Assembly (NCBI GenBank): GCA_947258975.1
Contig: CAMYKK010000008.1
Coordinates: 1 to 64,000, forward strand
DNA from: an uncultured Gammaproteobacteria bacterium
Lineage (GTDB): Bacteria > Pseudomonadota > Gammaproteobacteria > Arenicellales > JAANXG01
Direction of reading: 5' to 3'
Length of the DNA: 64,000 nt
Positions 3,621-34,919 of the stretch are shown in pieces; within the stretch, counting starts at the first letter, position 1, and each line of letters opens with the position of its first letter. The notes beneath the pieces were generated by a model. The model was not told the DNA's origin. It saw only the letters and a program-made list of their open reading frames with translations, and searched no databases. Position numbers and translations under genes: made by a program.

Positions 3621-3908
3621 CTACGACTCGTATTCATCGGGACTTCGCGCGCCGCCGAGATCCCCGTACTCGAAGAATTTCAGGACCGCGATGGTGCCGA
3701 CGAAGTTGATGAGGGCGTATACGAACGCGATGTCCAGGAAATCTGGCCGACCGGTCATGAATCCGAGCACGGCGATGATCAGCACGGTCTTGGTGCCGAA
3801 GGAATTCACCGCGAGGATGCGATCATAGGTGGTAGGACCGAGTATGCCGCGGCTCAGGGTCAGCGCCATGGTCAGCAATATTGCGCATGCGGCGAGCGCG
3901 AATATCAT
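3621..3908 (-). CDS. mrpF: Na+/H+ antiporter subunit F (MrpF/MnhF-like)
   Basis: A 95-residue membrane protein with three hydrophobic segments. It shows the MnhF signature around RGILGPTTYDRILAVNSFGTKTVLIIAVLGF and a following RPDFLDIAFVYALINFVGTIAVLKF. The ATG overlaps the mrpE stop by 4 bases (ATGA, 3905-3908), which implies coupled translation. Confidence 0.92.
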   Translation of the reverse strand: MIFALAACAILLTMALTLSRGILGPTTYDRILAVNSFGTKTVLIIAVLGFMTGRPDFLDIAFVYALINFVGTIAVLKFFEYGDLGGARSPDEYES

Positions 3909-4381
3909 TCTGCCCTCCCGACGCCGTGCACACGGCGCGCCATCTCGCCCGTTTCCAGTGCCAATGCCCCTTCCCGCGTCAGTGCATGCACAGTTATGGT
4001 CGCATCAGTCAGGTCAATGGAGACCGTGCCCGGAGTCAGTGTAATCGAGTTCGCGTAGATGACTTGCCGCAATTCATCGGAATCCGCGGGCACTTTAACC
4101 AATGTCGGACTGATTGGCAGCTTGGGACTCCAAACACGCTTCGCGACATCGATGTTGGATTTAACGATCTCCCCGATCAGCCAAATTAAATACAGGATCC
4201 AGCGCATGGGCCGAAGGTGCATGGGATGGCCTTCGTGGTCCACCACGTCCTGACGCCGCGCGATCCACACCACAAATGCGCAAGATGCCAAGCCCAGGAC
4301 TAACAACAGGGATTCGAAGTAGCCGGACAACAACAGCCACACGGCGAATGAGAACACAAATAAACTAATGCTGTGACGCAT
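3905..4381 (-). CDS. mrpE: Na+/H+ antiporter subunit E (MrpE/MnhE-like), first gene of the operon
   Basis: This 158-residue protein has two N-terminal membrane helices and a cytoplasmic domain typical of MnhE, with ISPTLVKVPADSDELRQVIYANSITLTPGTVSIDL, which matches the conserved 'ANSITLTPGT' family segment. It is the first gene of the antiporter operon and is transcribed away from the cbr genes. Its upstream region (4382-4591) is shared with them and contains the perfect palindrome at 4533-4591 and a weak sigma-54-like element near 4486-4503 on the minus strand (GGCAA...GTGGC, GG and GC 10 bases apart). Confidence 0.92.
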   Translation of the reverse strand: MRHSISLFVFSFAVWLLLSGYFESLLLVLGLASCAFVVWIARRQDVVDHEGHPMHLRPMRWILYLIWLIGEIVKSNIDVAKRVWSPKLPISPTLVKVPADSDELRQVIYANSITLTPGTVSIDLTDATITVHALTREGALALETGEMARRVHGVGRAE

Positions 4382-4532
4382 GGGTGGTTAGATTTGCTTA
4401 TTCGTTGTAATCGAGTCCAGTTTTGCTCACCGATGGAACGCGCTGTACGGTATACCGCAACTCGCGGGTTGGCGTCTACCAATGAAAGCCACCGCGTTGC
4501 CGTCACTGCTACTCGGACTGCGCGGACTTGCA

Positions 4533-4591
4533 GAGTGATAGCGTAGCAAATCATGTTACTTTTCGTAACATGATTTGCTACGCTATCACTC
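4533..4591. repeat. 27-bp perfect inverted repeat with embedded TGTTAC-N5-GTAACA site
   Basis: The arms 4533-4559 and 4565-4591 are exact reverse complements of 27 bases around the 5-base loop TTTTC. The inner part, 4554-4570, is TGTTAC-N5-GTAACA, the same dyad that occurs upstream of the symporter gene at 9167-9183. The right arm ends on the base before the ATG at 4592. It lies between divergent operons, so a terminator role is unlikely. It is best read as an operator, probably for CbrB, but the very long arms exceed what one such site needs. Confidence 0.85.
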
Positions 4592-4792
4592 ATGGTGAGT
4601 CCTTCAGACCCGATACGCCGCATTGAGTGGACGTTGCTGGTCGCAGCGTTGGCGCTGTTGTTATTCGCCACCCCGGTGGTCTATTGGTGGGCGCAAGACG
4701 ACAGCCCGTGGTATCTGGCGTACCTGTTGTGGCTGGTGATCATCGGACTCACCGCCTGGCTGCAGTCAAGGCGGAACCGTCATGACCTTTAG
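4592..4792 (+). CDS. Small two-helix membrane protein upstream of cbrA (CbrX-like position)
   Basis: The 66 residues contain two hydrophobic helices (TLLVAALALLLFATPVVYWW and WYLAYLLWLVIIGLTAWL) and a basic C-terminus. The stop lies inside cbrA, an 11-base overlap, so translation of the two is probably coupled. In Pseudomonas a small gene called cbrX sits in the same overlapping position before cbrA; that parallel is by position and size only. Small DUF3311-type partners of sodium:solute symporters look similar. No Shine-Dalgarno is visible because the start abuts the palindrome, so a leaderless transcript or another start is possible. Confidence 0.7.
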   Translation: MVSPSDPIRRIEWTLLVAALALLLFATPVVYWWAQDDSPWYLAYLLWLVIIGLTAWLQSRRNRHDL

Positions 4793-7751
4793 CCTGACCT
4801 ATTTATTTCTCGCTGTTGTCGGCTATTTGTCGCTGTTGTTCTTGATCGCCTATGCGACTGAACATGGACGCATTCCGAGCAGCGTTGCGCGCCATCCCGC
4901 CACCTACGTCTTATCGCTGGGCGTGTATGCGACCTCTTGGAGCTATTACGGCAGTGTCGGATTCGCCGAGACGCAAGGCTATACGTTTCTGACTGTGTAT
5001 CTTGGCGTGACGATCGCATTTGCGATGACGCCGATACTGTTGCAGCCGATCTTGCGGTTGGTGCGAGACTACCAGTTGACATCGACCGCGGACTTGTTTG
5101 CGTTTCGTTATCGAAGTCAAATGGCCGGAATTATTGTGACGCTGTTTATGATGGCCGGCACCTTACCGTATCTGGCATTACAGATACGTGCGGTGACTGA
5201 ATCGATACACGTATTGACCGCCGAAGCGCCACCGCGGTTTATTGCGCTCGGATTCTGCGTGACGTTGATATTATTTGCCATACTATTCGGAGCCCGGCAC
5301 ATCTCTCCGCGGGAAAAACACGAAGGATTAGTGGTCGCGATTGCTTTTGAGTCGTTGGTAAAAATTGTTGCCCTGTTGATGGTGGGCACGTTTGCGGTGT
5401 TTGGCGTATTTGGCGGCGTTGGCGGTGTCGGCCAATGGTTGGCGGCAAACCCTGAGGCACTGGAGGCGTTGTACCGGCCGGTCAGAGAGGGTCCTTGGAC
5501 GACGCTGATTTTCCTCGCCTTTGCTGCCGCATTCTTGTTGCCGCGTCAATTCCACATGACGTTTACGGAAAACATCGAGGCCCGCAGTCTTGGCGTTGCC
5601 AGCTGGGCGTTTCCGTTATTTCTGTTCCTATTCAACCTCGCGATTCCGCCGATCTTATGGGCAGGAACCGCGCTCGGTTCGGCATTGAATCCCGATTACT
5701 ATGTCTTGGGAATCACCTTGGGCGGCGGCTCCGAACTGTTGACGGTTGTCGCGTTCCTGGGTGGCGTGTCGGCCGCCAGTGCGATGGTGATCGTAACCAC
5801 GGTGGCTTTGTCGGCCATGTGTTTGAATCATATTGTGCTCCCCGCCAGTTATCCAGACCCCACGGTCGACCTGTACCGCTGGTTGTTGTGGGGACGGCGA
5901 GTTGTGATTGCGCTCATTGTGTTGGCCGGTTATGGGTTTTATGTGGCACTCGAAGACAATCAAGGTCTGGTGCAATTGGGATTGATTTCATTCGTGGCCG
6001 TGGCCCAGTTCGTGCCAGGTATCGTAGGGCTGCTTTATTGGCCACGCGCCAACCGCTACGGATTTCTTGCCGGACTCGCAGGTGGTGCAACGGTGTGGTT
6101 CGTGACCCTGGTCGTGCCGTTGATGGAACAGGCCGGTCAGCTCAAGCTGGATTTTAGCCTCTATCCGCTGCTCGCCTACACGCAACAAGACAAATGGACA
6201 TTCGTGACGTTTTGGTCGCTGGCACTGAATGGTTTTCTGTTCGTGGTCGTATCGCTGTTATCGCGGCAAACGCACGATGAGCGGGAAGCAGCGCTCGCCT
6301 GCACCCGACAGGCCTTCGCCTTGCCCCGCGGCGTCGTCACCGCTACCTCTCCGGCGCAATTTGTGGAACGGTTGGCGGAATCGTTGGGAAAGCCCATGGC
6401 CGAACGTGAGGTGCATCAAGCGCTTCAAGACCTTGAACTCGACGACGAAGAGGCCAATCCCTCGGAATTGCGGCGGTTGCGGGACCAGATCGAAAGGAAT
6501 TTATCGGGTCTCATGGGCCCCGAGATGGCACGTGTTCTGGTCGACGAGAAACTACAGCTGGACCCAGGTGCTCAGACGGCGTTTGCCGACAGTGTGCGCA
6601 TGATGGAGCAACGCCTGGAGGCGTCGCGGACCCAGTTACGTGGCATGGCCGCCGAAATGGACACCCTGCGGCGCTATCATCGACAGGTGTTGCAGGAGTT
6701 GCCCATGGGCGTGTGCTCCGTCGGTCCGGATCGTGAAGTGGTGATTTGGAATCACGCGATGGTGCGTATGTCCGGTATCGACGCGCAAAAGGTGGTCGGT
6801 ACCCAAGTGACACGATTGCCCGAGCCGTGGCGCCGTTTGTTCGACGAATTTCTCGACACCGATGCGCGCGAATCAATACAAAGAAAACGCCTAGCGGACC
6901 AAAGCTCGCGTTGGTTGGGACTGCACAAGGCATCGTTGGAAGATGTCGTGAGCGTGACTTCGATGGGCAGCCAATCGGCAGGGACCGTAATATTGGTCGA
7001 GGACCTGACCGAAACCAAATTATTGGAAGCCGAACTGGCGCACAGCGAACGGCTGGCATCCATTGGCCGACTTGCCGCCGGAGTCGCCCATGAAATCGGC
7101 AATCCAATTACCGGCATCGCTTGCCTGGCGCAGAACATCGAGGCCGAATGCGACGACAAGCAAGTTCGGCTGAGCATCAGCCAAATTCTGGATCAAACCA
7201 AACGGATCAGCAATATCCTGCGGTCGCTGGTTAGTTTTAGCCATAGGGGCGCTCACAACGACGGTGATTTGGGAGTTTTCAACCTGTGCGGCTGCGTCGA
7301 GGAAGCCATCGGGTTGGTAAAGCTGGGCGATGCGGAAAAGCGCATGGAATGCACCAACCGTTGTGATCGAAATGCCGAAATCTTCGGTGATCGGCAACGC
7401 TTATTGCAGGTCTTTGTCAACGTGTTGAGCAATGCTTGCGATGCATCTGGACACCGAGGTAAGGTCGAAATCGATACGCAGATCGACCGGGGTACGGTCG
7501 AGGTGATGATTCGCGACGACGGTGTGGGCATAACCGAGGCCGAACTCAATAAGGTGTTCGAGCCGTTCTTCACGACCAAAGAGCCGGGTAAAGGCACCGG
7601 GCTTGGATTGGCCTTAGCCTATAACATCATTCAAGAGCATGGTGGGCAAATCAGCATAGAGAGCGAACCGCAGAATGGGACCACGGTGATGATCCGGTTA
7701 CCGCAACATGGCGCCGAGATGCGCGCTGAGCAGAGCGCCGCAGTATCATGA
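4782..7751 (+). CDS. cbrA: Transporter-histidine kinase fusion, CbrA-like
   Basis: This 989-residue protein joins a sodium:solute symporter (SLC5/SSS) module of about 13 helices (residues 1-490) to a linker of the STAC type (about 500-610), a PAS domain (about 645-745) and a kinase. The H-box ASIGRLAAGVAHEIGNPITG has its histidine at residue 770, the N-box is LLQVFVNVLSNACDA and the G-box is GKGTGLGL near 936. Length and architecture match Pseudomonas CbrA (about 983 residues). The next gene is an NtrC-type regulator, as in CbrAB, and not a LuxR type as in CrbSR/MxtR-ErdR. The kinase probably reports on uptake of an amino acid or organic acid; the ligand cannot be read from sequence. Confidence 0.88.
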   Translation: MTFSLTYLFLAVVGYLSLLFLIAYATEHGRIPSSVARHPATYVLSLGVYATSWSYYGSVGFAETQGYTFLTVYLGVTIAFAMTPILLQPILRLVRDYQLTSTADLFAFRYRSQMAGIIVTLFMMAGTLPYLALQIRAVTESIHVLTAEAPPRFIALGFCVTLILFAILFGARHISPREKHEGLVVAIAFESLVKIVALLMVGTFAVFGVFGGVGGVGQWLAANPEALEALYRPVREGPWTTLIFLAFAAAFLLPRQFHMTFTENIEARSLGVASWAFPLFLFLFNLAIPPILWAGTALGSALNPDYYVLGITLGGGSELLTVVAFLGGVSAASAMVIVTTVALSAMCLNHIVLPASYPDPTVDLYRWLLWGRRVVIALIVLAGYGFYVALEDNQGLVQLGLISFVAVAQFVPGIVGLLYWPRANRYGFLAGLAGGATVWFVTLVVPLMEQAGQLKLDFSLYPLLAYTQQDKWTFVTFWSLALNGFLFVVVSLLSRQTHDEREAALACTRQAFALPRGVVTATSPAQFVERLAESLGKPMAEREVHQALQDLELDDEEANPSELRRLRDQIERNLSGLMGPEMARVLVDEKLQLDPGAQTAFADSVRMMEQRLEASRTQLRGMAAEMDTLRRYHRQVLQELPMGVCSVGPDREVVIWNHAMVRMSGIDAQKVVGTQVTRLPEPWRRLFDEFLDTDARESIQRKRLADQSSRWLGLHKASLEDVVSVTSMGSQSAGTVILVEDLTETKLLEAELAHSERLASIGRLAAGVAHEIGNPITGIACLAQNIEAECDDKQVRLSISQILDQTKRISNILRSLVSFSHRGAHNDGDLGVFNLCGCVEEAIGLVKLGDAEKRMECTNRCDRNAEIFGDRQRLLQVFVNVLSNACDASGHRGKVEIDTQIDRGTVEVMIRDDGVGITEAELNKVFEPFFTTKEPGKGTGLGLALAYNIIQEHGGQISIESEPQNGTTVMIRLPQHGAEMRAEQSAAVS

Positions 7752-9112
7752 GTGAGATACTGATCATCGATGACGAGGCCGTGATTCGCACGGAATTGAC
7801 TCGATTGCTTACACGTCACGGTTATCAGGTCGCCAGCGCGGGTTCGGTGGGAGAGGCCGAGCGGGACAACGATATCGGCGCATTCGATTTAATCATTGCC
7901 GACCTTAGACTGCCGGGTGAGTCTGGTACGAGTGTGATTTCGAAAAGCAACGGCACGCCGGTCTTGATCATGACCAGTTACGCGAGCGTCAAATCGGCCG
8001 TAGAGTCGATGCGCTTGGGGGCCGTGGATTACATTGCCAAACCGTTCGATCACCAAGAAATGATCATGGTCGTCGACCGGATTCTGAAAGAGGGGCGATT
8101 ACAACGGCAGAATGCGGCGCTGAAGTCCGTTGTGCAACGCGAATACCCGGTCAAGGGTATGATCGGGGCCTGCCCCGCCATGAAAGAGGTGTTCAGCCGC
8201 ATCAGCAAGGTGGCGCCCACCAACGCCAACGTACTGATACTGGGCGAATCCGGTACCGGCAAGGAGTTGGTGGCAAGGGCGATGCACGAGCACAGTCAAC
8301 GCAGCGATGCGGCGATCGTCACCGTCAACTGCGCGGCGATTCCTGAGGAGTTGATGGAGTCGGAGCTGTTCGGCCATGAGAAAGGCGCGTTCACCGGCGC
8401 GGTGGGTGCTCGAGAAGGACTCGTGGAGGCCGCCGACGGTGGTACCTTGTTCTTGGATGAGGTCGCGGAATTGTCCCCCGGTGCGCAAGCCGGCCTGTTA
8501 CGCGTTCTCCAGGATGGTGAAATACGCCGTGTGGGTTCCAACAAAGTACGGCGGGCGGATGTCCGGTTGTTGGCCGCGACACATCGCAACCTTGGCGACC
8601 GCGTTAAGCAAAGCCGTTTCCGCGGGGACCTGTATTTCCGCCTCCGGGTCATGGAGATCACACTGCCGCCACTAAGGGATAGAGGGGACGACATCGTCGC
8701 CTTGGCGGAGTCGCTGTTGGAACGCACGTGTAAACAGCTCAATCGCACGGTCATGGGATTTCACCGCCAGGCGGTGGAATTGATTCGGGAGTACCACTGG
8801 CCGGGCAACGTGCGCGAGTTGGAAAACGCGATCGAGCGCGCCGTAATCCTGTCCGAGCGGAACGAGATTGCCCCGGAGTTATTGGCAATCGATACCACGC
8901 GGGTGATCGCATCTAAAGACTCGATATCACATCAGGAGGACTCCCTGGACGATTATTTCTGCAGGTTTGTCCGCGAGCATGAGGACCAATTGACCGAGAC
9001 CGAATTGGCGAGACGTTTGGGGATCAGCCGTAAAACGCTGTGGGAACGCCGGCAACGGCTCGGTGTTCCGCGCCGGCACCGCGCAAGCCGAGCTGAGCAC
9101 GGTCCAGGTTAA
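7748..9112 (+). CDS. cbrB: Sigma-54-dependent response regulator, CbrB-like
   Basis: 454 residues in the NtrC order. The receiver has acidic residues D8-D9, phospho-acceptor D52 (IIADLRLPG) and the lysine of YIAKPFD. The AAA+ domain has Walker A GESGTGKE near 166 and an intact GAFTGA loop near 213, so contact with sigma-54 is expected. A Fis-type helix-turn-helix ends the protein (LARRLGISRKTLWERRQRLG, about 420-445). The ATG overlaps the cbrA stop (ATGA). Likely targets are the TGTTAC-N5-GTAACA sites at 4554 and 9148-9183. The hexamers equal those I recall for Pseudomonas CbrB, although the spacing there differs as far as I remember. Confidence 0.88.
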   Translation: MSEILIIDDEAVIRTELTRLLTRHGYQVASAGSVGEAERDNDIGAFDLIIADLRLPGESGTSVISKSNGTPVLIMTSYASVKSAVESMRLGAVDYIAKPFDHQEMIMVVDRILKEGRLQRQNAALKSVVQREYPVKGMIGACPAMKEVFSRISKVAPTNANVLILGESGTGKELVARAMHEHSQRSDAAIVTVNCAAIPEELMESELFGHEKGAFTGAVGAREGLVEAADGGTLFLDEVAELSPGAQAGLLRVLQDGEIRRVGSNKVRRADVRLLAATHRNLGDRVKQSRFRGDLYFRLRVMEITLPPLRDRGDDIVALAESLLERTCKQLNRTVMGFHRQAVELIREYHWPGNVRELENAIERAVILSERNEIAPELLAIDTTRVIASKDSISHQEDSLDDYFCRFVREHEDQLTETELARRLGISRKTLWERRQRLGVPRRHRASRAEHGPG

Positions 9113-9147: not shown

Positions 9148-9183
9148 TGTTACGAAACAATACATCTGTTACGAAGTGTAACA
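9148..9183 (+). promoter_or_regulatory. Two tandem activator sites (probable CbrB UAS)
   Basis: Site 1 (9148-9164) is TGTTAC-N5-AATACA, an imperfect dyad. Site 2 (9167-9183) is the perfect TGTTAC-N5-GTAACA. Their centres are 19 bases apart, about two helical turns, and site 2 lies about 97 bases upstream of the -24 element, a usual distance for an NtrC-type enhancer. The same dyad is in the palindrome before the cbr genes. Confidence 0.7.
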
Positions 9184-9270: not shown

Positions 9271-9287
9271 AGGCATAATTCTTGCAT
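9271..9287 (+). promoter_or_regulatory. Sigma-54 (-24/-12) promoter of the symporter gene
   Basis: The element AGGCATAATTCTTGCAT has GG at 9272-9273 and GC at 9284-9285 with exactly ten bases between, and a good TTGCA -12 box. Transcription would begin near 9297, giving a leader of about 115 bases. Confidence 0.8.
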
Positions 9288-17158: not shown

Positions 17159-17191
17159 GAATATTCCAGGGCCAGAGGCTTGGTGGAGAAC

Positions 17192-18895
17192 ATGAGTCGC
17201 GCCAAAATCGCCAGCCATCGCGGGCATCCGGGGGCACGGCGAGGTAAATCCGGGATTGTCCCCAAGGGCCGGCAGGTCGATGCGAACGCGATGACGGCGA
17301 TTCAGCAGCTGCTGGGCGGGCGATCCAGGCAGCGGGACCTGCTCATCGAACATCTGCACCGCATCCAGGATCGCTTCGGTCACCTTTCCGCGCCGCATCT
17401 GGCGGCATTGGCCGAGGAGATGCGGTTAGCGCAGACCGAGGTGTATGAGGTGGCGACTTTCTACGCGCATTTTGATGTGATCAAGGAAGGCGCGGCACCG
17501 CCCCCGCCGCTGACCGTTCGCGTGTGTGACAGTATCGCCTGTGAACTCGCGGGATCGCATGCCCTGCTGAGCGCATTGACAGAACATTGCGGCGCCCAGG
17601 TGCGTGTCGTGGGGGCGCCCTGTATGGGACGCTGCGACACGGCGCCGATCGCCGAGACGGGTCATTATTTTGTCGATCACGCCAGCGTGGCGTCGGTGCT
17701 CGCGGCAGTCCAGGAGCGCCGCACCGATCCCCAAGTGCCGGAATATATCAGCTTTGATCAGTACGTCGGGGACGGGGGTTACACACTGTTGCATGCGTGC
17801 CTGTCCGGTGAACAAGAACCCGACGAGGTGATGGCCGCACTGGAACAGGCGCAATTTCGTGGTTTGGGAGGGGCAGGTTTCCCCACCGGCCGCAAGTGGC
17901 GTATCGTGCGTGGAAAACCGGCGCCGCGTCTGTTGGCGGTGAATGCCGATGAAGGAGAACCGGGCACGTTCAAAGACCGCTACTATTTGGAACATGACCC
18001 GCATCGTTTCATTGAGGGAATGTTGATTGCCATGTGGGCCGTGGACGCCGAGCGATGTTATCTCTATCTGCGCGATGAATATCCGGCAATACGCGAGATT
18101 CTGTTGCAGGAATTGACGCGGGTGGAAAGCGAAGGGCTTGCCAGAAGTGGATCTATAGACTTACGCCGCGGCGCCGGGGCCTATATCTGCGGTGAGGAAT
18201 CCGCGATGATTGAATCGATCGAGGGTAAACGCGGTCTGCCGCGGAATCGACCTCCTTATGTGGCCGAGATCGGACTGTTCAATCGACCGACGCTGGTGAA
18301 CAATGTAGAGACCCTCTACTGGGTGCGCGACATCGTGGAGAAAGGGCCCGCGTGGTTCTCCGCTGCGGGGCGGAACGGACGCAACGGGTGGCGCAGCTTT
18401 TCCGTTTCGGGCCGGGTAAGAGAACCGGGTGTAAAGCTTGCGCCGGCTGGCATTACCGTCCGGGAACTGATCGAAGAATATTGCGGCGGCATGCAGGCTG
18501 GCCACGTTTTCAAGGCTTATTTACCCGGCGGTGCATCAGGCGGCATCCTGCCGGCGTTGCTGGGTGATGTGCCTCTGGACTTCGGGACATTGGAACAATA
18601 CGGGTGTCTGATCGGTTCCGCGGCGATTGTGGTGTTTGGTGACCAGGACAATATGCGCGACGTGGCATTGAATTTGATGCGGTTTTTTCAGCGAGAAAGC
18701 TGTGGACAATGCACGCCCTGCCGGGTAGGGACGGAGAAAGCCGCGCAGTTGATGACGGACCCGCGGTGGGATCGCGCGCTGTTGTCGGACCTGAGTGAGA
18801 CGATGGCGGACGCATCGATCTGCGGGCTGGGGCAAGCCGCGGGTAACCCGATCCAATGTGTGCTCAAATATTTCCCCGAGGATATCGATGGGTAA
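17192..18895 (+). CDS. Formate dehydrogenase diaphorase, FdsG-FdsB fusion (NuoE-NuoF type)
   Basis: One chain of about 567 residues joins a NuoE/FdsG module (about 30-165) to a NuoF/FdsB module (about 185-560). The first has the four cysteines of a [2Fe-2S] thioredoxin-like domain (CDSIAC and PCMGRCD). The second has the NADH/FMN loops GAGGFPTGRKWRI and NADEGEPGTFKDRYYLEHDPHRFIEG, and the [4Fe-4S] motif CGQCTPCRVGTEK. It would pass electrons from formate to NAD+. In FdsGBA systems these are normally two genes. The stop overlaps the fdsA start. ATG 17192 is chosen; GTG 17183 or TTG 17180 are alternatives. Confidence 0.9.
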   Translation: MSRAKIASHRGHPGARRGKSGIVPKGRQVDANAMTAIQQLLGGRSRQRDLLIEHLHRIQDRFGHLSAPHLAALAEEMRLAQTEVYEVATFYAHFDVIKEGAAPPPPLTVRVCDSIACELAGSHALLSALTEHCGAQVRVVGAPCMGRCDTAPIAETGHYFVDHASVASVLAAVQERRTDPQVPEYISFDQYVGDGGYTLLHACLSGEQEPDEVMAALEQAQFRGLGGAGFPTGRKWRIVRGKPAPRLLAVNADEGEPGTFKDRYYLEHDPHRFIEGMLIAMWAVDAERCYLYLRDEYPAIREILLQELTRVESEGLARSGSIDLRRGAGAYICGEESAMIESIEGKRGLPRNRPPYVAEIGLFNRPTLVNNVETLYWVRDIVEKGPAWFSAAGRNGRNGWRSFSVSGRVREPGVKLAPAGITVRELIEEYCGGMQAGHVFKAYLPGGASGGILPALLGDVPLDFGTLEQYGCLIGSAAIVVFGDQDNMRDVALNLMRFFQRESCGQCTPCRVGTEKAAQLMTDPRWDRALLSDLSETMADASICGLGQAAGNPIQCVLKYFPEDIDG

Positions 18896-21656
18896 GCCGC
18901 TGCAGTTCAAGCTCGACGGTCGCGCGATCGATGCCGTGCCCGGCGAGACGATTTGGCAGGCAGCCAAACGCTGCGGTGTTGATATACCCCATCTTTGCTT
19001 TTCTCCGGCCCCCGGTTACCGCGCGGACGGCAACTGTCGGGTATGTATGGTGGAGATCGAAGGTGAGCGGGTGTTGGCGGCTTCATGTTTGCGTAAACCG
19101 ACAGCGGGAATGGAGGTACACACTACCAGCGCGCGCGCCGTCGGTGCACAGAGTATGGTGATGGAGTTGTTGCTGGCGGATCAACCGCCACGTGAAGCCG
19201 CGCACGATAAAGAGTCCCGGCTCTGGCATTGGGCCGAGCGGCTGCGTGTTGACGGAAGCCGGTTTCCGCTTCGCGATGCGCCGGCTGCGGATGCCAGCCA
19301 CCCGGCAATGCACGTTGCTTTGGATGCTTGTATACACTGCAATCTGTGTGTGCGCGCGTGTCGCGAGGTGCAGGTCAATGACGTGATCGGCATGGCGTAC
19401 CGGGGTCATGACGTAAAAATCGTATTTGACTTCGACGATCCCATGGGTGAGAGCACCTGTGTGGCGTGCGGCGAGTGCGTGCAGGCCTGTCCAACGGGGG
19501 CGTTGATGGCGGCCTCTCTGGTTGATGCAAACGGCATTGGCAAGAATGATTTGTTAACGGCGGTGGATAGCATCTGCCCCTACTGCGGGGTCGGCTGCCA
19601 GATCACATATCAGGTCAAAGACAATCAAGTAGCCGCGGTCCAGGGCCGGGCGGGCCCGGCAAACGAGAATCGTCTGTGTGTCAAGGGCCGGTTTGGTTTT
19701 GATTACGTTCAGCACCCGCATCGCCTCACAAAACCGCTGATCCGCCATGATGATGCACTCAAGCACGGTGATCTTGACCTCGACCCGGCGCATCCTTTGA
19801 CCCACTTTCGCGAGGCGAGTTGGGAGGAGGCGTTGCACGCAGCGGCGGAAGGGTTCACGGCGATTCGCGACCGCGACGGTCATCGAGCATTGGCGGGATT
19901 TGGTTCTGCAAAGTGCTCAAATGAAGAGGCGTATCTTTTCCAAAAACTCGTGCGCACCGGATTCGGCACTAATAATGTGGATCACTGTACCCGTCTGTGT
20001 CACGCGTCATCGGTGGCGGCGTTGCTCGAGGGAATCGGTTCCGGCGCGGTCACCGCGCCATTTACCGCCGTCAAGGACGCCGACGTGATAATTGTGATTG
20101 GCGCCAACCCAACAGAAAATCATCCGGTTGCGGCGACCTATTTCAAACAAGCAGCCAAGCGGGGCACTTTGATTGTCATGGATCCAAGAGGGCAGGCGCT
20201 GAGACGGCATGCCAAGCACATGTTGCAGTTCAAGCCCGGCACTGACGTTGCGTTGCTGAACGCGATGCTCAATGTAATCGTTGCAGAGCAACTTTATGAT
20301 CGGGTATACGTCGATGCGCACACGGAGGGTTTCGAAAACCTAAAGCGCCACGTCAAAGACTATACACCTGAATCAATGTCTCACGTATGTGGCATTGAGG
20401 CCGAGACCATCCGTACCGTGGCGCGGACATATGCCCAGGCGGGCGCGGCGATCATATTTTGGGGTATGGGGATCTCGCAGCATATTCATGGCACCGACAA
20501 TGCTCGTTGCTTGATCGCGCTGGCACTGATCACTGGGCATGTGGGTCGGCCCGGAACCGGGCTCCATCCACTCCGTGGTCAAAACAATGTACAAGGCGCC
20601 TCTGACGCTGGTCTGATACCGATGATGTATCCCGACTATCAATCCGTCGAGGTGGCGGATGTCCGCGGTCGCTTCGAAGATTTCTGGGGCAGCGCGCTCG
20701 ATGCGCAACAGGGCTTGACCGTCGTGGAGATCATGACGGCGATCCACGCGGGACAGATCAAGGGAATGTACATCATGGGTGAAAATCCAGCGATGTCAGA
20801 TCCGGATGCAGAACACGCGCGCGAGGCGCTCGCCAAGCTCGATCACCTCGTGGTGCAGGATCTTTTTCTAACCGAAACCGCATTTTTTGCCGACGTGATA
20901 TTGCCGGCGTCTGCGTGGCCGGAAAAAGAAGGCACCGTCACGAACACCAATCGTCAGGTTCAACTAGGAAGGCGCGCGCTGAACACGCCCGGGGACGCGC
21001 GTCAGGACTGGTGGATTATCCAGGAGATGGCAAGACGCATCGGCTGTGATTGGCATTACAGTCATCCACGCGATGTTTTTGCCGAAATGACGAAGGTCAT
21101 GCCGTCCTTCAACAATATCACCTGGGAGCGCTTAGAGGCGGAGAGCGCCGTCACCTATCCATGCAGCGCTCCCGATACACCAGGCGAAGCGATTGTGTTC
21201 GGTGATCGATTTCCTACCGCCAGCGGCCGCGGTAAACTAGTCCCCGCAGCGTTAACCTCACCGGACGAGCTACCGGATGAGGAGTACCCGATGATCTTGA
21301 CGACCGGGCGGCAACTCGAACATTGGCATACTGGTGCGATGACCCGCCGTGCCAGCATCCTGGATGAGATCGAACCGGAGGCGGTTGCCAGTCTGTCACC
21401 CGTCGATTTGCGCCGTCTCGATATCCAACCGGGAGCGCTGGTGAACGTCACTACTAGGCGCGGTATGATCGAACTCAAGGCCAGAGCGGACACAGCCATT
21501 CCGACCGGCATGATATTTATCCCGTTTTGCTATGCCGAAGCGGCGGCCAATGTGCTGACCAATCCTGCGCTCGATCCTTACGGTAAGATTCCTGAGTTCA
21601 AATTTTGCGCGGCCCGTGTAGACACGGCGACGACGGTGTTAACGGCTGAGCGGTAA
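18888..21656 (+). CDS. fdsA: NAD-dependent formate dehydrogenase catalytic subunit (FdsA-like)
   Basis: The ATG at 18888 overlaps the diaphorase stop, giving about 922 residues. In order: an N-terminal [2Fe-2S] domain (CGVDIPHLCF, CRVCMVEIEG), a His-Cys motif, two [4Fe-4S] clusters (CIHCNLCVRACRE and CVACGECVQACPTGAL), a further cluster (CPYCGVGCQ) and the molybdopterin domains. The catalytic pair is Cys371-His372 in HCTRLCHASS, so this is a cysteine enzyme, not a selenocysteine one. It oxidises formate to CO2 in the cytoplasm. No fdsC/fdhD or fdsD genes follow, so maturation factors must lie outside the window. Confidence 0.93.
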   Translation: MGKPLQFKLDGRAIDAVPGETIWQAAKRCGVDIPHLCFSPAPGYRADGNCRVCMVEIEGERVLAASCLRKPTAGMEVHTTSARAVGAQSMVMELLLADQPPREAAHDKESRLWHWAERLRVDGSRFPLRDAPAADASHPAMHVALDACIHCNLCVRACREVQVNDVIGMAYRGHDVKIVFDFDDPMGESTCVACGECVQACPTGALMAASLVDANGIGKNDLLTAVDSICPYCGVGCQITYQVKDNQVAAVQGRAGPANENRLCVKGRFGFDYVQHPHRLTKPLIRHDDALKHGDLDLDPAHPLTHFREASWEEALHAAAEGFTAIRDRDGHRALAGFGSAKCSNEEAYLFQKLVRTGFGTNNVDHCTRLCHASSVAALLEGIGSGAVTAPFTAVKDADVIIVIGANPTENHPVAATYFKQAAKRGTLIVMDPRGQALRRHAKHMLQFKPGTDVALLNAMLNVIVAEQLYDRVYVDAHTEGFENLKRHVKDYTPESMSHVCGIEAETIRTVARTYAQAGAAIIFWGMGISQHIHGTDNARCLIALALITGHVGRPGTGLHPLRGQNNVQGASDAGLIPMMYPDYQSVEVADVRGRFEDFWGSALDAQQGLTVVEIMTAIHAGQIKGMYIMGENPAMSDPDAEHAREALAKLDHLVVQDLFLTETAFFADVILPASAWPEKEGTVTNTNRQVQLGRRALNTPGDARQDWWIIQEMARRIGCDWHYSHPRDVFAEMTKVMPSFNNITWERLEAESAVTYPCSAPDTPGEAIVFGDRFPTASGRGKLVPAALTSPDELPDEEYPMILTTGRQLEHWHTGAMTRRASILDEIEPEAVASLSPVDLRRLDIQPGALVNVTTRRGMIELKARADTAIPTGMIFIPFCYAEAAANVLTNPALDPYGKIPEFKFCAARVDTATTVLTAER

Positions 21657-21878
21657 CTAACCGGAACGACGACGGCGAAATTGCAGTGCGATGGATGAGG
21701 GTCGATGGAAATATCCCGAATATTCCGCCACGGTTGCTGAAAGAGGGGGGCCGCATTGGTTTGGCGTTAAGAGTAACATGACTGCCTGGAACGACACTTT
21801 ATTCCCGGATGTGCGCCTGATCCGATGCCGGCCAGGTCGCGAACGCGATAACTTGCACTTCACTCAACAAAACAGCAG

Positions 21879-21903
21879 GGATCGGAGTTCGTGACTCCGA
21901 TCC
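21879..21903 (+). terminator. Hairpin downstream of the fds genes
   Basis: The stem GGATCGGAGT pairs perfectly with ACTCCGATCC around the loop TCGTG. It is followed only by a weak T tract (GATTTGTG), and it lies 222 bases after the fdsA stop. It may be a weak terminator or simply a repeat-like hairpin. Confidence 0.4.
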
Positions 21904-21917
21904 GATTTGTGATCGCG

Positions 21918-21960
21918 CCAGCGCGGCGCCCAGCCGCCCAGCGCCGTCGCCGTCATCCGC
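21918..21960 (+). repeat. Short intergenic repeat, copy A
   Basis: A 43-base stretch starting CCAGCGCGGCGCCCA and ending GCCGTCATCCGC matches 33 of 43 bases with 32512-32554, also intergenic, by direct comparison. Confidence 0.45.
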
Positions 21961-22008
21961 GATCGGTGGCGGCGTATACGGGTTAATCCGCGACAGCGAA
22001 ACGACAAC

Positions 22009-23019
22009 ATGCAGGCGGTGCTATTAAAGAATTTCGGCGGTCCTGATGTACTTTACCTCGGGGAGACGGAAACACCGACGGCGCAGGCGGGGCAAGTGCT
22101 CATCAGGGTGATGGCTACTTCAGTCAATCGCCCTGACATCGTTCAACGCCAAGGTCATTACCCTGCGCCCCCGGGAGACTCGGAAATTTTGGGACTCGAG
22201 GTTGCCGGCGTTGTGGAGGAGGTCGGTGTCGAAGTCACCCAGTGGCATGCGGGTGACCGGGTCATGGCGCTGGTTGGAGGCGGTGGGTACGCGGAGTTCG
22301 CAGTGGCTCATGCCGCACACGTTATGCCCATCCCCGATTCAATGAGCTTCAATGAGGCGGCGTGTGTCTGCGAGACCTATATCACCGCTTATCTCAACGT
22401 ATTCTTGATCGGCGGGCTGGAAAATGACGGTGCGGTGCTGATACACGGTGGCGGCGGCGGCGTCAACACCGCTGCCGTTCAGCTGTGTCAGGCGTTGACC
22501 CCGGCGGTGAAAATCATGGTGACCGCCTCCCCGCAGAAGATCGAGCGCGTAAAAACACTCGGCGCTGATTTCGTCATTGACTACACTACCCAGAAGTTTG
22601 CCGATGAGGTCAGGAGTTTTACTAACAAGCGGGGCGCCCAGGTGATATTGGATCATATCGGCGCCGCTTATCTTGCTTCCAATATGAAAGCCCTTGCAGT
22701 TGGCGGAACACTGGTGATCATCGGGGTAATGGGCGGAGTAAAGGCTGAGGTGAACCTTGCTTTGATGATGGTGAAGCGGCAAAAGATCGTTGGATCTGTC
22801 CTGAGGTCCCGGACATTGCCGGAGAAGGCGGCCATTATCTCCAAGTTTTCGAACAGCGTTTTACCGCAATTGTCGGCGCGTAAGATTGTGCCATTGATCG
22901 ATAGCGTGTACGGTTTGCATGATGCGGAAGCAGCGCACCGGAAAATGGAGGCGAGCACGCATTTTGGGAAGGTGGTGTTGTCGCTTGCCGGTGAAGCGGA
23001 ACAGCGCTTGAGCGTCTAG
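22009..23019 (+). CDS. NAD(P)H:quinone oxidoreductase-like MDR protein
   Basis: 336 residues of the zinc-free medium-chain dehydrogenase/reductase superfamily, closest in pattern to PIG3-type quinone oxidoreductases: ATSVNRPDIVQRQGHYPAPPG near the N-terminus, the LGLEVAGVVEEVG segment and a Rossmann loop around IHGGGGGVNTAAVQL. The usual zinc-binding cysteines are absent. It stands before the SucC-like gene (9 bases between them), so it is probably co-transcribed with it. Its substrate in this pathway is not known; an enoyl- or acyl-linked reduction would be speculation. Confidence 0.8.
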   Translation: MQAVLLKNFGGPDVLYLGETETPTAQAGQVLIRVMATSVNRPDIVQRQGHYPAPPGDSEILGLEVAGVVEEVGVEVTQWHAGDRVMALVGGGGYAEFAVAHAAHVMPIPDSMSFNEAACVCETYITAYLNVFLIGGLENDGAVLIHGGGGGVNTAAVQLCQALTPAVKIMVTASPQKIERVKTLGADFVIDYTTQKFADEVRSFTNKRGAQVILDHIGAAYLASNMKALAVGGTLVIIGVMGGVKAEVNLALMMVKRQKIVGSVLRSRTLPEKAAIISKFSNSVLPQLSARKIVPLIDSVYGLHDAEAAHRKMEASTHFGKVVLSLAGEAEQRLSV

Positions 23020-23028
23020 GGGAGAACC

Positions 23029-24282
23029 ATGCATATTCATGAGTATCAAGCCAAGCAACTTTTTGCTAAATATGGCATACCCGTACCCGAGGGTGGTGCT
23101 GCTTCTACCGTTGATGACGCGGTACGAATTGCCCGTGACATGGGAGGCGATGCTTGGATGGTCAAGGCACAGATCCACGCAGGCGGGCGCCGCGCCGGTC
23201 ATTTCGAAAATGCGCCCCAGGGGGAAGGCGGTGTGCGCATGGCGAAATCTGTCGCCGATGTCGAAAAGCATGCCGGGCAAATGTTGGGCAATGCGCTCAT
23301 CACGACGCAAACCAGGCCGGCGGGTCGTGAGGTGGATCGTGTTTACGTCGAACGAGCGTGCGACGTTCAAAGTGAACTGTACCTTGGCATGTTGGTTGAC
23401 CGTCACAGCAGCCGGGTGACGTTGATCGCATCGGCAGCAGGGGGTATCAATATCGAATCGATCGCCAAACAACATCCAGAGTCGATCGTGAAACTTGCCG
23501 TCGATCCGCGCGAGGGCTTGGGAGAAGAAGCAGCTCGAAGTGTGGTGTCAGAGTTGGCGCTTGGTGACGAACAAGCGGGCGTTACGGCCCGTCTCATACG
23601 TACCATGTATGAAATGTTTGTCGATTTGGATGCATCGCTCATTGAAATAAATCCGTTGGCGATCACGGCTGCAAACGAGGTAATCGCCTTGGATGCAACG
23701 TTGACATTCGACGACAACGCATTATTCCGGCACCACGACATCCAGGCGCTTCGTGACCGAGCCGAATTGCAGCTAGGAGAACTCGAGGCGGTACAACATG
23801 GGATAAATTACGTGAAGTTGGACGGTAACATCGGTTGTTTGGCGAGCGGCGCCGGAACTGCTCTCGCGACCCTGGACGCGATTCATTTGCTTGGGGGAGA
23901 GCCCGCGAACTTTCTCGATGTGCCGCCGGTGGCCCAGGTAGGGCGGATCAAAGAGGCGTTAAGGCTATTATTGTCAGATCCTGGCGTGGCGAGCATTTTA
24001 GTTAACGTGTTTGGTGGTGGCATCATGCGCTGTGACACCATCGCGGACGCGATCATCATGGCGAATCGTGACACGCCCCTGACGGTGCCGTTGGTCGCCA
24101 GGCTTGCCGGGACGAACGCGACTTTTGCGATCCGCAGGCTCAAGGATGCGGAGCCGGATGTTATTTTTGCCAGCGATCTGGCAGATGCCGCGGACAAAGC
24201 AGTGCAGGCGGCGAAACAGACCAAAGAGATTCAACGCCGTTCATGGTGGCAGCGGGTGCGCGGGGTAAGTGGCGAAACGTGA
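23029..24282 (+). CDS. SucC-like acyl-CoA ligase beta subunit
   Basis: 417 residues: an ATP-grasp domain (1-240) and a CoA-ligase domain, as in succinyl-CoA synthetase beta or malate thiokinase MtkA. It starts with the family MHIHEYQAKQLFAKYGIPVP and keeps SLIEINPLAI. The active-site loop is unusual: where SucC and MtkA usually have DVGGGA, this has DVPPVA, and the later motif reads FGGGIMRCD with an extra glycine. A C-terminal extension of about 25 residues is present. The gene pairs with the SucD-like gene 31 bases on. No TCA-cycle genes adjoin, so a special substrate (malate, oxalate or another dicarboxylate) is likely. Confidence 0.85.
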   Translation: MHIHEYQAKQLFAKYGIPVPEGGAASTVDDAVRIARDMGGDAWMVKAQIHAGGRRAGHFENAPQGEGGVRMAKSVADVEKHAGQMLGNALITTQTRPAGREVDRVYVERACDVQSELYLGMLVDRHSSRVTLIASAAGGINIESIAKQHPESIVKLAVDPREGLGEEAARSVVSELALGDEQAGVTARLIRTMYEMFVDLDASLIEINPLAITAANEVIALDATLTFDDNALFRHHDIQALRDRAELQLGELEAVQHGINYVKLDGNIGCLASGAGTALATLDAIHLLGGEPANFLDVPPVAQVGRIKEALRLLLSDPGVASILVNVFGGGIMRCDTIADAIIMANRDTPLTVPLVARLAGTNATFAIRRLKDAEPDVIFASDLADAADKAVQAAKQTKEIQRRSWWQRVRGVSGET

Positions 24283-24313
24283 ATGGATGATGTGATTTCG
24301 AGGTAATGACAAA

Positions 24314-25192
24314 ATGTCGGTATTAGTCAACGCAAACACGAAGGTGATCTGCCAAGGTATAACCGGGCAGCAGGGTACATTTTTTACGGAACAGGCGCTC
24401 GCTTCCGGTACCAATATGGTCGCAGGCGTGCGGCCCGGAAAGGGTGGTGCCAGACACCTGGGTTTACCGGTTTTCGACACGGTAAAAGAGGCGGTTACTG
24501 CCACCGGCGCCGATGCCAGCGTGATTTTCGTGCCTCCCGACCATGCCGCACAAGCAATCCATGAATCCATTGACGCCGATATGCCATTGGTTGTGTGTGT
24601 CACCGAACGCATTCCAGTGTTGGACATAGTTGGCATCAAGCGTGCCTTGGAGTCGGCCAACACCAGATTGCTCGGTCCGAATTGTCCCGGAATTATCACC
24701 CCGGGTGAGTGCCGGATCGGCATTATGCCGCAAGAGATCTTCCGCCGCGGCCGGATCGGCATTATCTCCCGTACCGGGACGCTCACGTACGAGGCGGTCG
24801 ACCAAACAAGCAAGGCCAATCTAGGTCAATCCACGTGCATCGGGATCGGCGCCGATCCGCTACAAGGCATGACATTCTGTGACTGCCTGGCGTTGTTCAG
24901 GGACGATGATGAGACCGATGGCGTGATTCTTATTGGTGAGATCGGAGGTGAGGCGGAGGAAGAAGCGGCTGAGTATTTGCGAGCCAATCCGAGCGCTAAG
25001 CCCATCGTCGCCTATGTTGCGGGTCGCTTTGCGCCGCCGGGTCGGCGCATGGGCCATGCGGGCGCGATCATTCAGCATGGAACCGGCGGCGCCGAAGCCA
25101 AGATCGACGCGTTGCGCGCTGCCGGAGTCCATGTTGCCGAGTCACCAGTCACGATCGGAGCCACCATGGCACAAGTATTGGCGCGTGGTTAG
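24314..25192 (+). CDS. SucD-like acyl-CoA ligase alpha subunit
   Basis: 292 residues matching SucD/MtkB. The N-terminal CoA-binding Rossmann domain has [19 protein letters not shown], and the phosphohistidine loop [10 protein letters not shown] places the active histidine at residue 248. It forms a heteromer with the preceding SucC-like product and makes an acyl-CoA with ATP or GTP. The TAG stop is followed by CCCGCAT, the start of the dispersed repeat seen elsewhere. The substrate remains open, as for the beta subunit. Confidence 0.87.
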
Positions 25193-25272
25193 CCCGCATA
25201 TTGCGCTTCACTCAACGCATCACTGCGGCTGGGCATCTCGCTCTAGCGCAGCGCAAGTTCCTTCTCCAGCAT

Positions 25273-25301
25273 CCGGGATCCTGGTGAGAAAAGCGGGCTA
25301 G
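25273..25301 (+). repeat. Dispersed repeat, copy 2
   Basis: This copy runs CCGGGATCCTGGTGAGAAAA then GCGGGCTAG. An inverted partial copy (TAGCCCGCAT) begins at the stop codon of the SucD-like gene (25190), so the interval 25190-25301 is bounded by inverted ends, as in REP-type or small non-autonomous elements. Confidence 0.65.
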
Positions 25302-25367
25302 ACTCGCGAAATTTGGTCGTGATCGACACGCAGAGGTAATGAACAGGGTCTGTTTGTGTTGCGCTTA

Positions 25368-25404
25368 TTGCGAGACGCATTCTTTTTGGTATACGATATA
25401 CCAA
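25368..25404 (+). promoter_or_regulatory. tct promoter with perfect GntR-type palindrome
   Basis: The palindrome TTGGTATA-CGA-TATACCAA (25386-25404) has perfect 8-bp arms. It overlaps a plausible -10 box TACGAT (25392-25397) placed 18 bases after TTGCGA. It lies about 110 bases before the TctC-like start. The same dyad precedes gntR and, with one change, fds. Confidence 0.7.
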
Positions 25405-25514
25405 GAAAATAAGATGTAGCGATGCCTGCTGTCGCACCCCGAGTCGGGTGCGGGGCACACATAACCCGGACAGACATACGCCGGGTTACTGACAACACCT
25501 TTAGGAGGAGAACG

Positions 25515-26489
25515 ATGAAGACTCTGTGCAAAACGGCAGTGGTACCTGCCGTCGTAATCGTGGTTGCGTTGGTTTTTTCAGGAATCGCAGTCGCTGGCTG
25601 GGAGCCGAAAAAACCCGTTGATTTCATAATCATGGCGGGTAAGGGCGGTGGCGCGGACAAGATGGCGCGCTTGATGCAAAGTGTGATCGAAAAACACAAA
25701 CTTGCTTCCAAGCCGTTTATTCCGATCAACAAACCCGGGGGTTCCGGTGCGGAGGCGTTGGTTCATCTGAAGCAGAAAACTGGTGACGACCATACGATCA
25801 TGGTCACGTTGAATAGTTTCTACACCACACCGCTGCGTCAGCCTGGGTTGGGGGTCGACGTCATGACATTCGCGCCGATCGGCCGCATGGCTGAAGACAC
25901 GTTCCTGCTGTGGGTGCACAAGGACACAGGCATCATGAACGTCGATGATTTCGTCAAGGCCGCCAAGTCGGCCGGTAACAAATGGATTATGGCGGGGACC
26001 GGTAAGGGTCAAGAGGACCAATTGCTGACCAATTTCCTCAACAAGGCCTATGGCCTGGACATGAAGTACGTACCCTTCAAAGGCGGCGGCCGCGTTGCGA
26101 AGGAACTGGCCGGCAAGCACGCCAATTCAACGGTCAATAACCCATCGGAACAGCTCGGCTTTTATGAAGCCGGGAACACGGTTCCGTTGGCGGCATTTAC
26201 CCAGGATCGGTTGCCATTGTTCGCGAATGCGCCGACGTTTCGCGAGTTGGGCAAGGATTTCGTGTATTTCATGCAGCGCAGCGTGGTCGGCGCGCCGGGT
26301 ATGAGCAAAGAGGCCGAAGAGTACTACCGCAACGTGTTCAAGAAGGTCTTCCAAACGGAGGAATGGCAGGGCTACATGAAAAAGAAGAGCCTGCAGGGTG
26401 AATTCTTGACCGGCAGCGATTTAAAGGCCTATTGGAAGCGGGAGAAGGATATCCACGAGACGATGTTGAAGGATATAGGTGAGATTTAA
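25515..26489 (+). CDS. Tripartite tricarboxylate transporter substrate-binding protein (TctC/Bug family)
   Basis: The ATG at 25515 follows AGGAGGAGAACG; an upstream frame extension to 25422 lacks such a site. The 324-residue product has a signal peptide (KTAVVPAVVIVVALVFSGIAVA, cleavage near residue 27), then the Bug-family fold with PVDFIIMAGKGGGADKMARLMQ and a conserved GTGKGQEDQL loop. It would catch a carboxylate in the periplasm and deliver it to the TctAB proteins encoded next. Given the neighbours, oxalate or a related dicarboxylate is a reasonable guess. Confidence 0.9.
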   Translation: MKTLCKTAVVPAVVIVVALVFSGIAVAGWEPKKPVDFIIMAGKGGGADKMARLMQSVIEKHKLASKPFIPINKPGGSGAEALVHLKQKTGDDHTIMVTLNSFYTTPLRQPGLGVDVMTFAPIGRMAEDTFLLWVHKDTGIMNVDDFVKAAKSAGNKWIMAGTGKGQEDQLLTNFLNKAYGLDMKYVPFKGGGRVAKELAGKHANSTVNNPSEQLGFYEAGNTVPLAAFTQDRLPLFANAPTFRELGKDFVYFMQRSVVGAPGMSKEAEEYYRNVFKKVFQTEEWQGYMKKKSLQGEFLTGSDLKAYWKREKDIHETMLKDIGEI

Positions 26490-26532
26490 GCTCCCGCGGT
26501 ACAAACGCGACGAATAAACAAGGCCGGGCACC

Positions 26533-27030
26533 GTGCGCAAAGCGGAACTAGTGATGGCGGCGGTGATGGGATTGTTTTCGGTCTACTTGATGTGGAAAAG
26601 CGCGGAACTCCCCATCGGCTGGATTCCCGAGGAGGGCCCAGGCGGTGGGGCATTTCCGTTTTGGTTGTCTGCCGGGATGCTGGTTTGCTGCATCTGGATA
26701 ATCGTGCGCTGGTTTGGACGCGCCGGTACGGTGGCGGCGTCCACCGGCCAGTACATGGATTCTGCGACGCTGCGAATGTTTTTGCTGGTGGCCGGTTCGC
26801 TGACGGTGATGATCGGGCTGATCCATATCGTCGGGGTCTATGTCTCCATTCCCCTGTTCATGCTGTTCTACATGCGATACATGGGCGGTCATCGCTGGTT
26901 GCCAACTGGCGTAATTTCCGTGGCGACTCCGGTTGTGGCGTTTTTCTTTTTTGAGATTTCATTGAAAATCACCCTTCCCAAGGGTTTCACCGAGCCGCTT
27001 TTCTATCCCCTGTACGACATCTTTCTCTAG
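26533..27030 (+). CDS. Tripartite tricarboxylate transporter small membrane subunit (TctB)
   Basis: 165 residues with four hydrophobic segments and a conserved early loop (WIPEEGPGGGAFPFWLSAGML) typical of TctB. The start is GTG. It sits between the TctC- and TctA-like genes, with 9 bases to the latter. TctB is the small integral membrane partner of TctA in ion-driven uptake. Confidence 0.88.
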   Translation: MRKAELVMAAVMGLFSVYLMWKSAELPIGWIPEEGPGGGAFPFWLSAGMLVCCIWIIVRWFGRAGTVAASTGQYMDSATLRMFLLVAGSLTVMIGLIHIVGVYVSIPLFMLFYMRYMGGHRWLPTGVISVATPVVAFFFFEISLKITLPKGFTEPLFYPLYDIFL

Positions 27031-27039
27031 CGCCCCGCC

Positions 27040-28566: not shown

Positions 28567-28619
28567 ATATCTCGTGCGCAAGGCACCAGTTGATCGCGCG
28601 ACAATTGCGTGGTGTGGGC

Positions 28620-28655
28620 TTGCCGGTAGCATCGAATATGGTATATTGTATACCA
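28620..28655 (+). promoter_or_regulatory. gntR promoter with perfect operator palindrome (autoregulation)
   Basis: The dyad TGGTATA-TTG-TATACCA (28639-28655) is perfect and contains the -10 box TATATT (28642-28647), 16 bases after TTGCCG (28620-28625). Transcription would begin near 28654, next to the annotated ATG, so the regulator likely represses its own gene. Confidence 0.72.
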
Positions 28656-28656
28656 A

Positions 28657-29385: not shown

Positions 29386-29443
29386 TCGAGTGGCGCAAAA
29401 TTTTCGGGACTAAATCGAAATTATTTCCCCGGGAGGTGAAATC

Positions 29444-31195: not shown

Positions 31196-31210
31196 CTTGA
31201 GGAGACAGTT

Positions 31211-32488: not shown

Positions 32489-32511
32489 CGCGCGTGCCGA
32501 GTTGCATCACT

Positions 32512-32554
32512 CCAGCGCAGCGCCCAACTGCCTGATCCCGTTGCCGTCATCCGG
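32512..32554 (+). repeat. Short intergenic repeat, copy B
   Basis: This is the partner of 21918-21960 (33 of 43 bases identical). It begins 23 bases after the frc stop. No inverted structure stands out. Confidence 0.45.
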
Positions 32555-32735
32555 GTCCAGGCGCATTATGCGAGCTTACGGAGCTGCAGGGAGACGCTGA
32601 TGAGCGTTTACCTTGGTTTGGTTCGTATCACCCCGGCTAGGGGGTGTGTGAATTTGACTCGCTGCATTACCTGTCGCATCACATGGTACCCGCGTTGACA
32701 GAATCAAAACTAATGAAAACACTAGGAGGCCACCA

Positions 32736-34868: not shown

Positions 34869-34919
34869 GTGCGCGGGTGTAGAAGAGACGGTTGAGGATG
34901 CGCAGCGCATGGTGATGAT

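What the first reader, a model, noticed from the sequence alone, without database searches (positions are those of the whole stretch)
4533..4591. 27-bp perfect palindrome abutting a start codon and containing the CbrB dyad
The arms are perfect over 27 bases with a 5-base loop, far beyond a normal operator, and the inner 17 bases are the TGTTAC-N5-GTAACA dyad found before the symporter gene. It ends on the base before the ATG of the small gene. The transcript would start with, or contain, a very stable hairpin that could hide the start, giving RNA-level control as well as DNA binding.
Basis: partly seen in the sequence, partly recalled or inferred. Interest (0 to 1): 0.6.

Follow-up and report, generated by a model that had tools for sequence, protein, structure and literature searches.

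The report
Mirror-image promoter with built-in regulator switch
A long perfect DNA palindrome in front of a carbon-sensing regulator operon is best read as that operon's promoter wrapped around a deeply conserved binding site for the operon's own regulator, with one half later copied as a mirror image, rather than as an RNA hairpin control.

Summary
The palindrome is real: 27-bp perfect arms, 5-nt loop, 4533-4591, ending one base before the ATG of cbrX. Its core, TGTTAC-N5-GTAACA, occurs twice in the 5.49-Mb genome: here and upstream of the symporter gene. In front of cbrX the core is conserved in 63 of 73 distinct gammaproteobacterial cbr loci, at this spacing only. The hexamers equal the published CbrB subsites of Pseudomonas, but the spacing is that of an NtrC-type dimer. 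The right arm carries an extended -10, and in 31 of the 38 loci with a full match the start codon lies 6-7 nt downstream. That predicts a leaderless mRNA with the operator over the -35 region, hence CbrB autorepression. The long left arm is a mirror copy of this promoter, found in only 4 of 62 loci, all in one clade, probably made by template switching. Its mirrored -10 stays identical while flanking DNA diverges, so a leftward promoter is possible. All function is inferred from sequence: no transcript, binding or expression data.

The parts
4533..4559 (.). Left arm of the palindrome, a mirror copy of the right arm; only in a four-genome clade
4560..4564 (.). Asymmetric 5-nt centre TTTTC
4565..4591 (.). 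Right arm of the palindrome, carrying the predicted cbrX promoter
4554..4570 (.). 17-bp dyad TGTTAC-N5-GTAACA, predicted CbrB dimer operator
   Evidence: conserved in 63 of 73 distinct loci; two copies in the genome
4576..4584 (+). Extended -10 TGCTACGCT of cbrX; predicted start at or next to 4592 (leaderless)
4540..4548 (-). Mirrored extended -10 facing the Mrp operon; activity unknown
4446..4476 (-). Conserved block that probably belongs to the Mrp operon's own promoter
   Evidence: identity there measured over 4453-4479
3905..4381 (-). mnhE, first gene of the divergent Mrp antiporter operon
   Evidence: Pfam MNHE
4592..4792 (+). cbrX, 66 aa, overlaps the start of cbrA by 11 nt
4782..7751 (+). 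cbrA, histidine kinase of 989 aa with N-terminal symporter-like part
7748..9112 (+). cbrB, NtrC-type sigma-54 response regulator
9148..9183 (+). Predicted CbrB enhancer TGTTAC-N13-TGTTAC-N5-GTAACA
9272..9286 (+). Predicted sigma-54 promoter GGCATAATTCTTGCA
   Evidence: rpoN present in the genome
9412..11370 (+). Sodium:solute symporter gene (called actP here for short)
   Evidence: Pfam SSF

Best explanation
The palindrome is the promoter of cbrX-cbrA-cbrB built around an operator for its own product. The 17-bp core binds a CbrB dimer. It covers the -35 position of an extended -10 promoter carried by the right arm. Transcription starts at or next to the ATG, giving a leaderless cbrX mRNA. CbrB bound there blocks RNA polymerase, so the operon represses itself, while CbrB bound upstream of the symporter gene activates a sigma-54 promoter. 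The extra length of the left arm is a mirror copy of the promoter half, made in one clade, most likely by template switching at the pre-existing dyad, and maintained since. Shown by sequence: the palindrome, the conserved dyad and its spacing, the place of the -10, the restriction of the long arm to one clade. Inferred: binding by CbrB, repression, the leaderless start, the template-switch origin.
For: Dyad at N5 in 63 of 73 distinct loci (57 at 11 of 12 or better), Markov control 0.65, at most 8 loci for any other spacing 0-21. Full extended -10 in 38 of 62 dyad loci, start codon 6-7 nt later in 31 of these 38. Two exact sites in the own genome, both at this locus; 15 of 17 family sites at cbrX or the symporter promoter. 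CbrB of a CrcZ-bearing genome shares the HTH segment and the TGTTAC/GTAACA hexamers. Left arm mirrors the right arm in 21, 20, 19 and 15 of 21 positions in four genomes, next best 11, median 6 of 62 loci. NtrC represses its own sigma-70 promoters (PMC3870243, passages); NtrC sites have the same N5 geometry (PMC4987338, passages); template switching makes perfect hairpins (PMC8794818, abstract and outline).
Against: No binding, expression or transcript data. In P. putida CbrB binds non-palindromic subsites as a monomer and does not control CbrA level. No full sigma-70 consensus promoter was found in 4350-4700. 24 of 62 dyad loci lack a full extended -10, clearly so in the f2 family; 10 of 73 loci lack the dyad. 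The loci are related, so counts are not independent.
Confidence: 0.65

Rival explanations
1. Working bidirectional promoter: the mirrored left arm also fires leftward toward the Mrp operon, and one CbrB dimer at the centre represses both directions; polymerase can engage in only one orientation at a time.
For: By symmetry the left arm holds the same extended -10. Its 13-bp mirrored -10 stretch is identical in own, G004 and G005 although the adjacent spacer is 40-57% identical and the outer arm 43-71%. G005 keeps it despite uncorrected arm mismatches. Mrp is divergent in the own family. Bidirectional promoters are common in E. coli (PMC12825309, passages).
Against: Mrp has its own conserved block nearer its start. 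In G002 the Mrp start lies about 300 bp further away, yet the palindrome is kept. Arm-to-arm copying could also keep the left arm identical. Known E. coli cases share one -10; here the two -10s are 30 bp apart with overlapping -35 regions.
Confidence: 0.3
2. Neutral by-product: a template switch copied the promoter half once; the left arm does nothing and persists by chance or by repeated arm-to-arm copying.
For: Only 4 of 62 loci have it; outer arm already decays in G005, and G001 has lost or never had it. One pair differs by a change on both sides between own and G002/G004, as arm copying would give.
Against: Inner 19 left-arm bases next to the dyad are identical in own, G002 and G004 although third codon positions of cbrA are only 66-74% identical between them.
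Confidence: 0.5
3. RNA hairpin at the 5' end of the cbr mRNA hides the start or protects the message.
For: As RNA, 4533-4640 folds at -58.5 kcal/mol, z -10.8, with the full 27-bp stem.
Against: The stem ends before the ATG and does not pair with it; the predicted promoter lies inside the stem; most relatives keep dyad and -10 without the long stem; covariation does not clearly exceed shuffles.
Confidence: 0.06

Closest known systems
CbrX-CbrA-CbrB of Pseudomonas (PMC6591292, PMC6296734, PMC8871633; passages)
   Same: Gene order, small overlapping cbrX, kinase and NtrC-type regulator; hexamers TGTTAC/GTAACA; in a CrcZ-bearing genome the CbrB HTH segment is nearly the same
   Different: Pseudomonas sites are TGTTAC-N12-14-GTAACA-N15-19-GTAACA, non-palindromic; CbrA level not controlled by CbrB; cbrX has an RBS and leader; CrcZ follows cbrB, whereas here a symporter gene does and no CrcZ was found in the genome (whose 14 control genomes also gave none)
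NtrC autorepression at glnAp1 and glnLp of E. coli (PMC3870243, PMC4987338; passages)
   Same: sigma-54 activator with a 6-N5-6 dyad, predicted to repress its own sigma-70 promoter while activating a neighbouring sigma-54 promoter
   Different: Different half-site; leaderless target; single dyad over the -35 position; repression not shown here
Bidirectional promoters of E. coli (PMC12825309; passages)
   Same: Symmetric promoter DNA that could engage polymerase in two orientations
   Different: There the starts lie around one shared -10; here two separate -10s stand back to back with an operator between them
Template-switch hairpins (PMC8794818, abstract and outline; PMC7202029, search listing)
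   Same: A perfect inverted repeat with an asymmetric loop, present in one clade only

Membership tests
CbrAB two-component system | Small cbrX overlapping cbrA, then cbrB | tested here: met
   overlap 4782-4792
CbrAB two-component system | Orthology with Pseudomonas CbrA and CbrB | tested here: met
   CrcZ-bearing genome G220: CbrA 49%, CbrB 58% identity, same HTH segment; no tree with paralogues was made
CbrAB two-component system | CbrB site TGTTAC-N12-14-GTAACA-N15-19-GTAACA | tested here: not met
   same hexamers, N5 dyad instead
CbrAB two-component system | CrcZ-type sRNA under CbrB control | tested here: inconclusive
   none found in own genome, but no control genome rang
NtrC-type autorepressed promoter | 6-N5-6 dyad over the core of the regulator's own promoter | tested here: met
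NtrC-type autorepressed promoter | Repression by the regulator | not testable with these tools
   needs reporter or RNA data
Leaderless gene | Start codon at the transcript 5' end | tested here: inconclusive
   -10 to start spacing 6-7 nt in 31 of 38 loci; no 5' end mapped
Bidirectional promoter | Transcription in both directions | not testable with these tools
   sequence symmetry only
Structured RNA leader | Arm pairing conserved with compensatory changes | tested here: not met
   47 of 500 shuffles reach the observed count; long stem in 4 of 62 loci

The most novel reading that the evidence does not exclude
A perfectly symmetric pair of back-to-back promoters, made by mirror copying, in which one CbrB dimer at the centre governs both the leaderless cbrXAB operon and leftward transcription toward the Mrp antiporter, tying carbon sensing to ion homeostasis; set within a gammaproteobacteria-wide, leaderless, self-repressing CbrAB switch that the Pseudomonas line has lost or remodelled.
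Probability: 0.22. Interest if true: 0.65.

Novelty: new variant of a known kind. Interest (0 to 1): 0.48.

Why it matters
CbrAB is described as exclusive to pseudomonads (PMC6296734, PMC8871633, passages). Here CbrXAB homologues with a dimer-type operator on their own promoter appear in many gammaproteobacterial families. If right, self-repression by CbrB, reported absent in P. putida, would be the common state, and Pseudomonas, where CbrB binds as a monomer to spaced subsites, the exception; that is directly testable. The predicted leaderless start of a conserved regulator operon would be unusual in this class. The mirror arm is a clear case of a promoter copied into a palindrome and kept over species divergence.

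Tried and rejected
RNA hairpin over the start: rejected as the main reading. Dispersed repeat or REP-like element: rejected, single copy within 3 mismatches. Assembly artefact: rejected, the arm is in four assemblies. Terminator: both flanking operons run away from it; the one terminator-like hit is inside cbrX at 4643-4658, with 0.4 expected in shuffles. Left arm needed as the Mrp promoter: not supported because Mrp has its own conserved block, but not excluded. CrbS/CrbR (acetate) membership: considered because of the symporter; CrbR is LuxR-type with another motif (PMC5715377, PMC9100948, passages), whereas the regulator here is NtrC-type. Literature: searches listed no report of a CbrB site on a cbrX promoter outside Pseudomonas; only the held open library was searched and papers were read in passages. 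CrcZ in the own genome: none, but the control was silent. PDB search placed CbrB with NtrC-family regulators and added nothing more.

Rows dropped: of the 42 loci, looked at 40 (not L061, cut off, nor L074, an unrelated kinase) and one search also left out L057 (too little upstream). One search used 75 regions (own, 39 named, 29 class, 6 f2); two identical rows were removed, leaving 73. The f1 loci were not counted again because the named loci are the same contigs. One search used the 63 regions with dyad score 10 or more and lost L069 (no start found); its start for L067 is plainly wrong and for L053 doubtful, and both stayed in the counts. In one search loci on the minus strand were read in the wrong orientation; one search repeats it correctly. 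G002 was left out of the identity figures because of a roughly 300-bp insertion.

Full report
OBSERVATION. The palindrome is as described: arms 4533-4559 and 4565-4591, perfect, centre TTTTC, ending one base before the ATG at 4592. It stands alone in the window; in five shuffles the longest perfect arm was 13. TGTTAC-N5-GTAACA occurs in the genome only at 4554-4570 and 9167-9183, and a 20-base stretch of the arm has no other copy within 3 mismatches.

SETTING. To the right are a 66-aa gene that overlaps the next by 11 nt (cbrX-like), cbrA, cbrB and a sodium:solute symporter gene; to the left, divergent, the Mrp antiporter operon. CbrB is an NtrC-type regulator. Its CbrA and CbrB are 49% and 58% identical to ours, the CbrB HTH segment is nearly the same, its site after cbrB is TGTTAC-N15-GTAACA, and it has no dyad before cbrX (best score 8 of 12). 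So the protein family and half-site are shared, the geometry is not.

THE CORE IS A CONSERVED OPERATOR. Of 73 distinct upstream regions, 63 hold the dyad with at least 10 of 12 positions, 57 with at least 11, and 38 with all 12. No other spacing from 0 to 21 gives more than 8 regions at 10 of 12; a Markov control gives 0.65. The regions are related, so this is not a count of independent events. In the own family, 17 exact sites were found in 9 of 13 genomes; by coordinates 15 lie before cbrX or the symporter gene and 2 elsewhere in G011 (placed by hand). Before the symporter gene, own and close relatives have TGTTAC-N13-TGTTAC-N5-GTAACA (or near matches) and a GG-N10-GC sigma-54 promoter; rpoN is present. 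In P. putida CbrB uses the same hexamers as TGTTAC-N12-14-GTAACA-N15-19-GTAACA and is a monomer (PMC6296734, PMC8871633, passages), and it does not control CbrA level (PMC6591292, passages). The N5 spacing is that of NtrC dimer sites (PMC4987338, passages).

THE RIGHT ARM IS A PROMOTER. In 38 of 62 dyad loci with a cbrX start, a full TGNTANNNT lies 2-6 bp after the dyad; in 31 of these 38 the start codon follows after 6 or 7 nt. With 5 fixed bases and about 20 positions per locus, about one such match in 62 is expected by chance (arithmetic). Given the usual distance from -10 to the first base, this predicts transcription from the ATG itself and puts the dyad over the -35 position (own: -35 place 4556-4561 at a 17-bp spacer). 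A sigma-54 activator sitting there should block sigma-70 polymerase, as NtrC does on its own promoters (PMC3870243, passages). Against: no full sigma-70 consensus is found in 4350-4700; 24 of 62 loci lack a full extended -10; 10 of 73 lack the dyad.

THE LEFT ARM IS A MIRROR COPY. Outside the dyad, the left 21 bases match the mirror of the right 21 in 21 (own), 20 (G004), 19 (G002) and 15 (G005) positions; the next best loci have 11, the median of 62 is 6. G001 (11 of 21) and G003 lack it. The mirrored -10 stretch 4540-4552 is identical in own, G004 and G005, while the spacer beside it is 40-57% identical between them and the outer arm 43-71%. Something maintains it: selection for a leftward promoter, or repeated arm copying. 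G005, with uncorrected arm mismatches but an intact mirrored -10, leans to selection, on one genome. The conserved Mrp block and the roughly 300-bp insertion between Mrp and palindrome in G002 lean the other way. Pair counts on six genus members do not clearly exceed shuffles.

VERDICT. A known kind of element, an autoregulatory operator-promoter, in an unusual form. Most general result: CbrXAB homologues across many gammaproteobacterial families carry a dimer-type CbrB site and a probably leaderless start on their own promoter; the papers seen call CbrAB exclusive to pseudomonads and report no such site. The long palindrome itself is a lineage-specific addition that may or may not work as a second, leftward promoter.

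Noticed in passing
L034:1825-1830 (genome G005): The cbrX ATG of the relatives reads ATA here and the next codon is GTG (ATAGTG), so the start seems to have moved by one codon.
   Followed up: partly
window 4446-4476: Block TACGGTATACCGCA-CTCGCGGG-GGCGTC conserved in five genus members, including those without the long palindrome; probably the Mrp promoter or its operator.
   Followed up: partly
L076:1501-1520 and L077:1107-1126: Two TGTTACCAT-N2-ATGGTAACA palindromes elsewhere in the genome, each about 200 bp upstream of nearly identical 157-aa proteins that read by eye like HTH antitoxins (no family search).
   Followed up: partly
window 17180-36811: ORFs that read by eye like formate dehydrogenase, a tripartite tricarboxylate transporter, oxalyl-CoA decarboxylase and CoA-transferase, perhaps an oxalate/C1 cluster downstream (names recalled, not searched).
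   Followed up: no
L035 (genome G002), about 2560-2880: Roughly 300 extra bases between the Mrp operon and the palindrome; origin not examined.
   Followed up: no
Sedimenticola loci L054, L055, L056, L058, L059, L070, L072, after cbrB: Symporter enhancers there have an extra GTAACA 7-8 nt beyond the N5 dyad, another geometry of CbrB half-sites.
   Followed up: no
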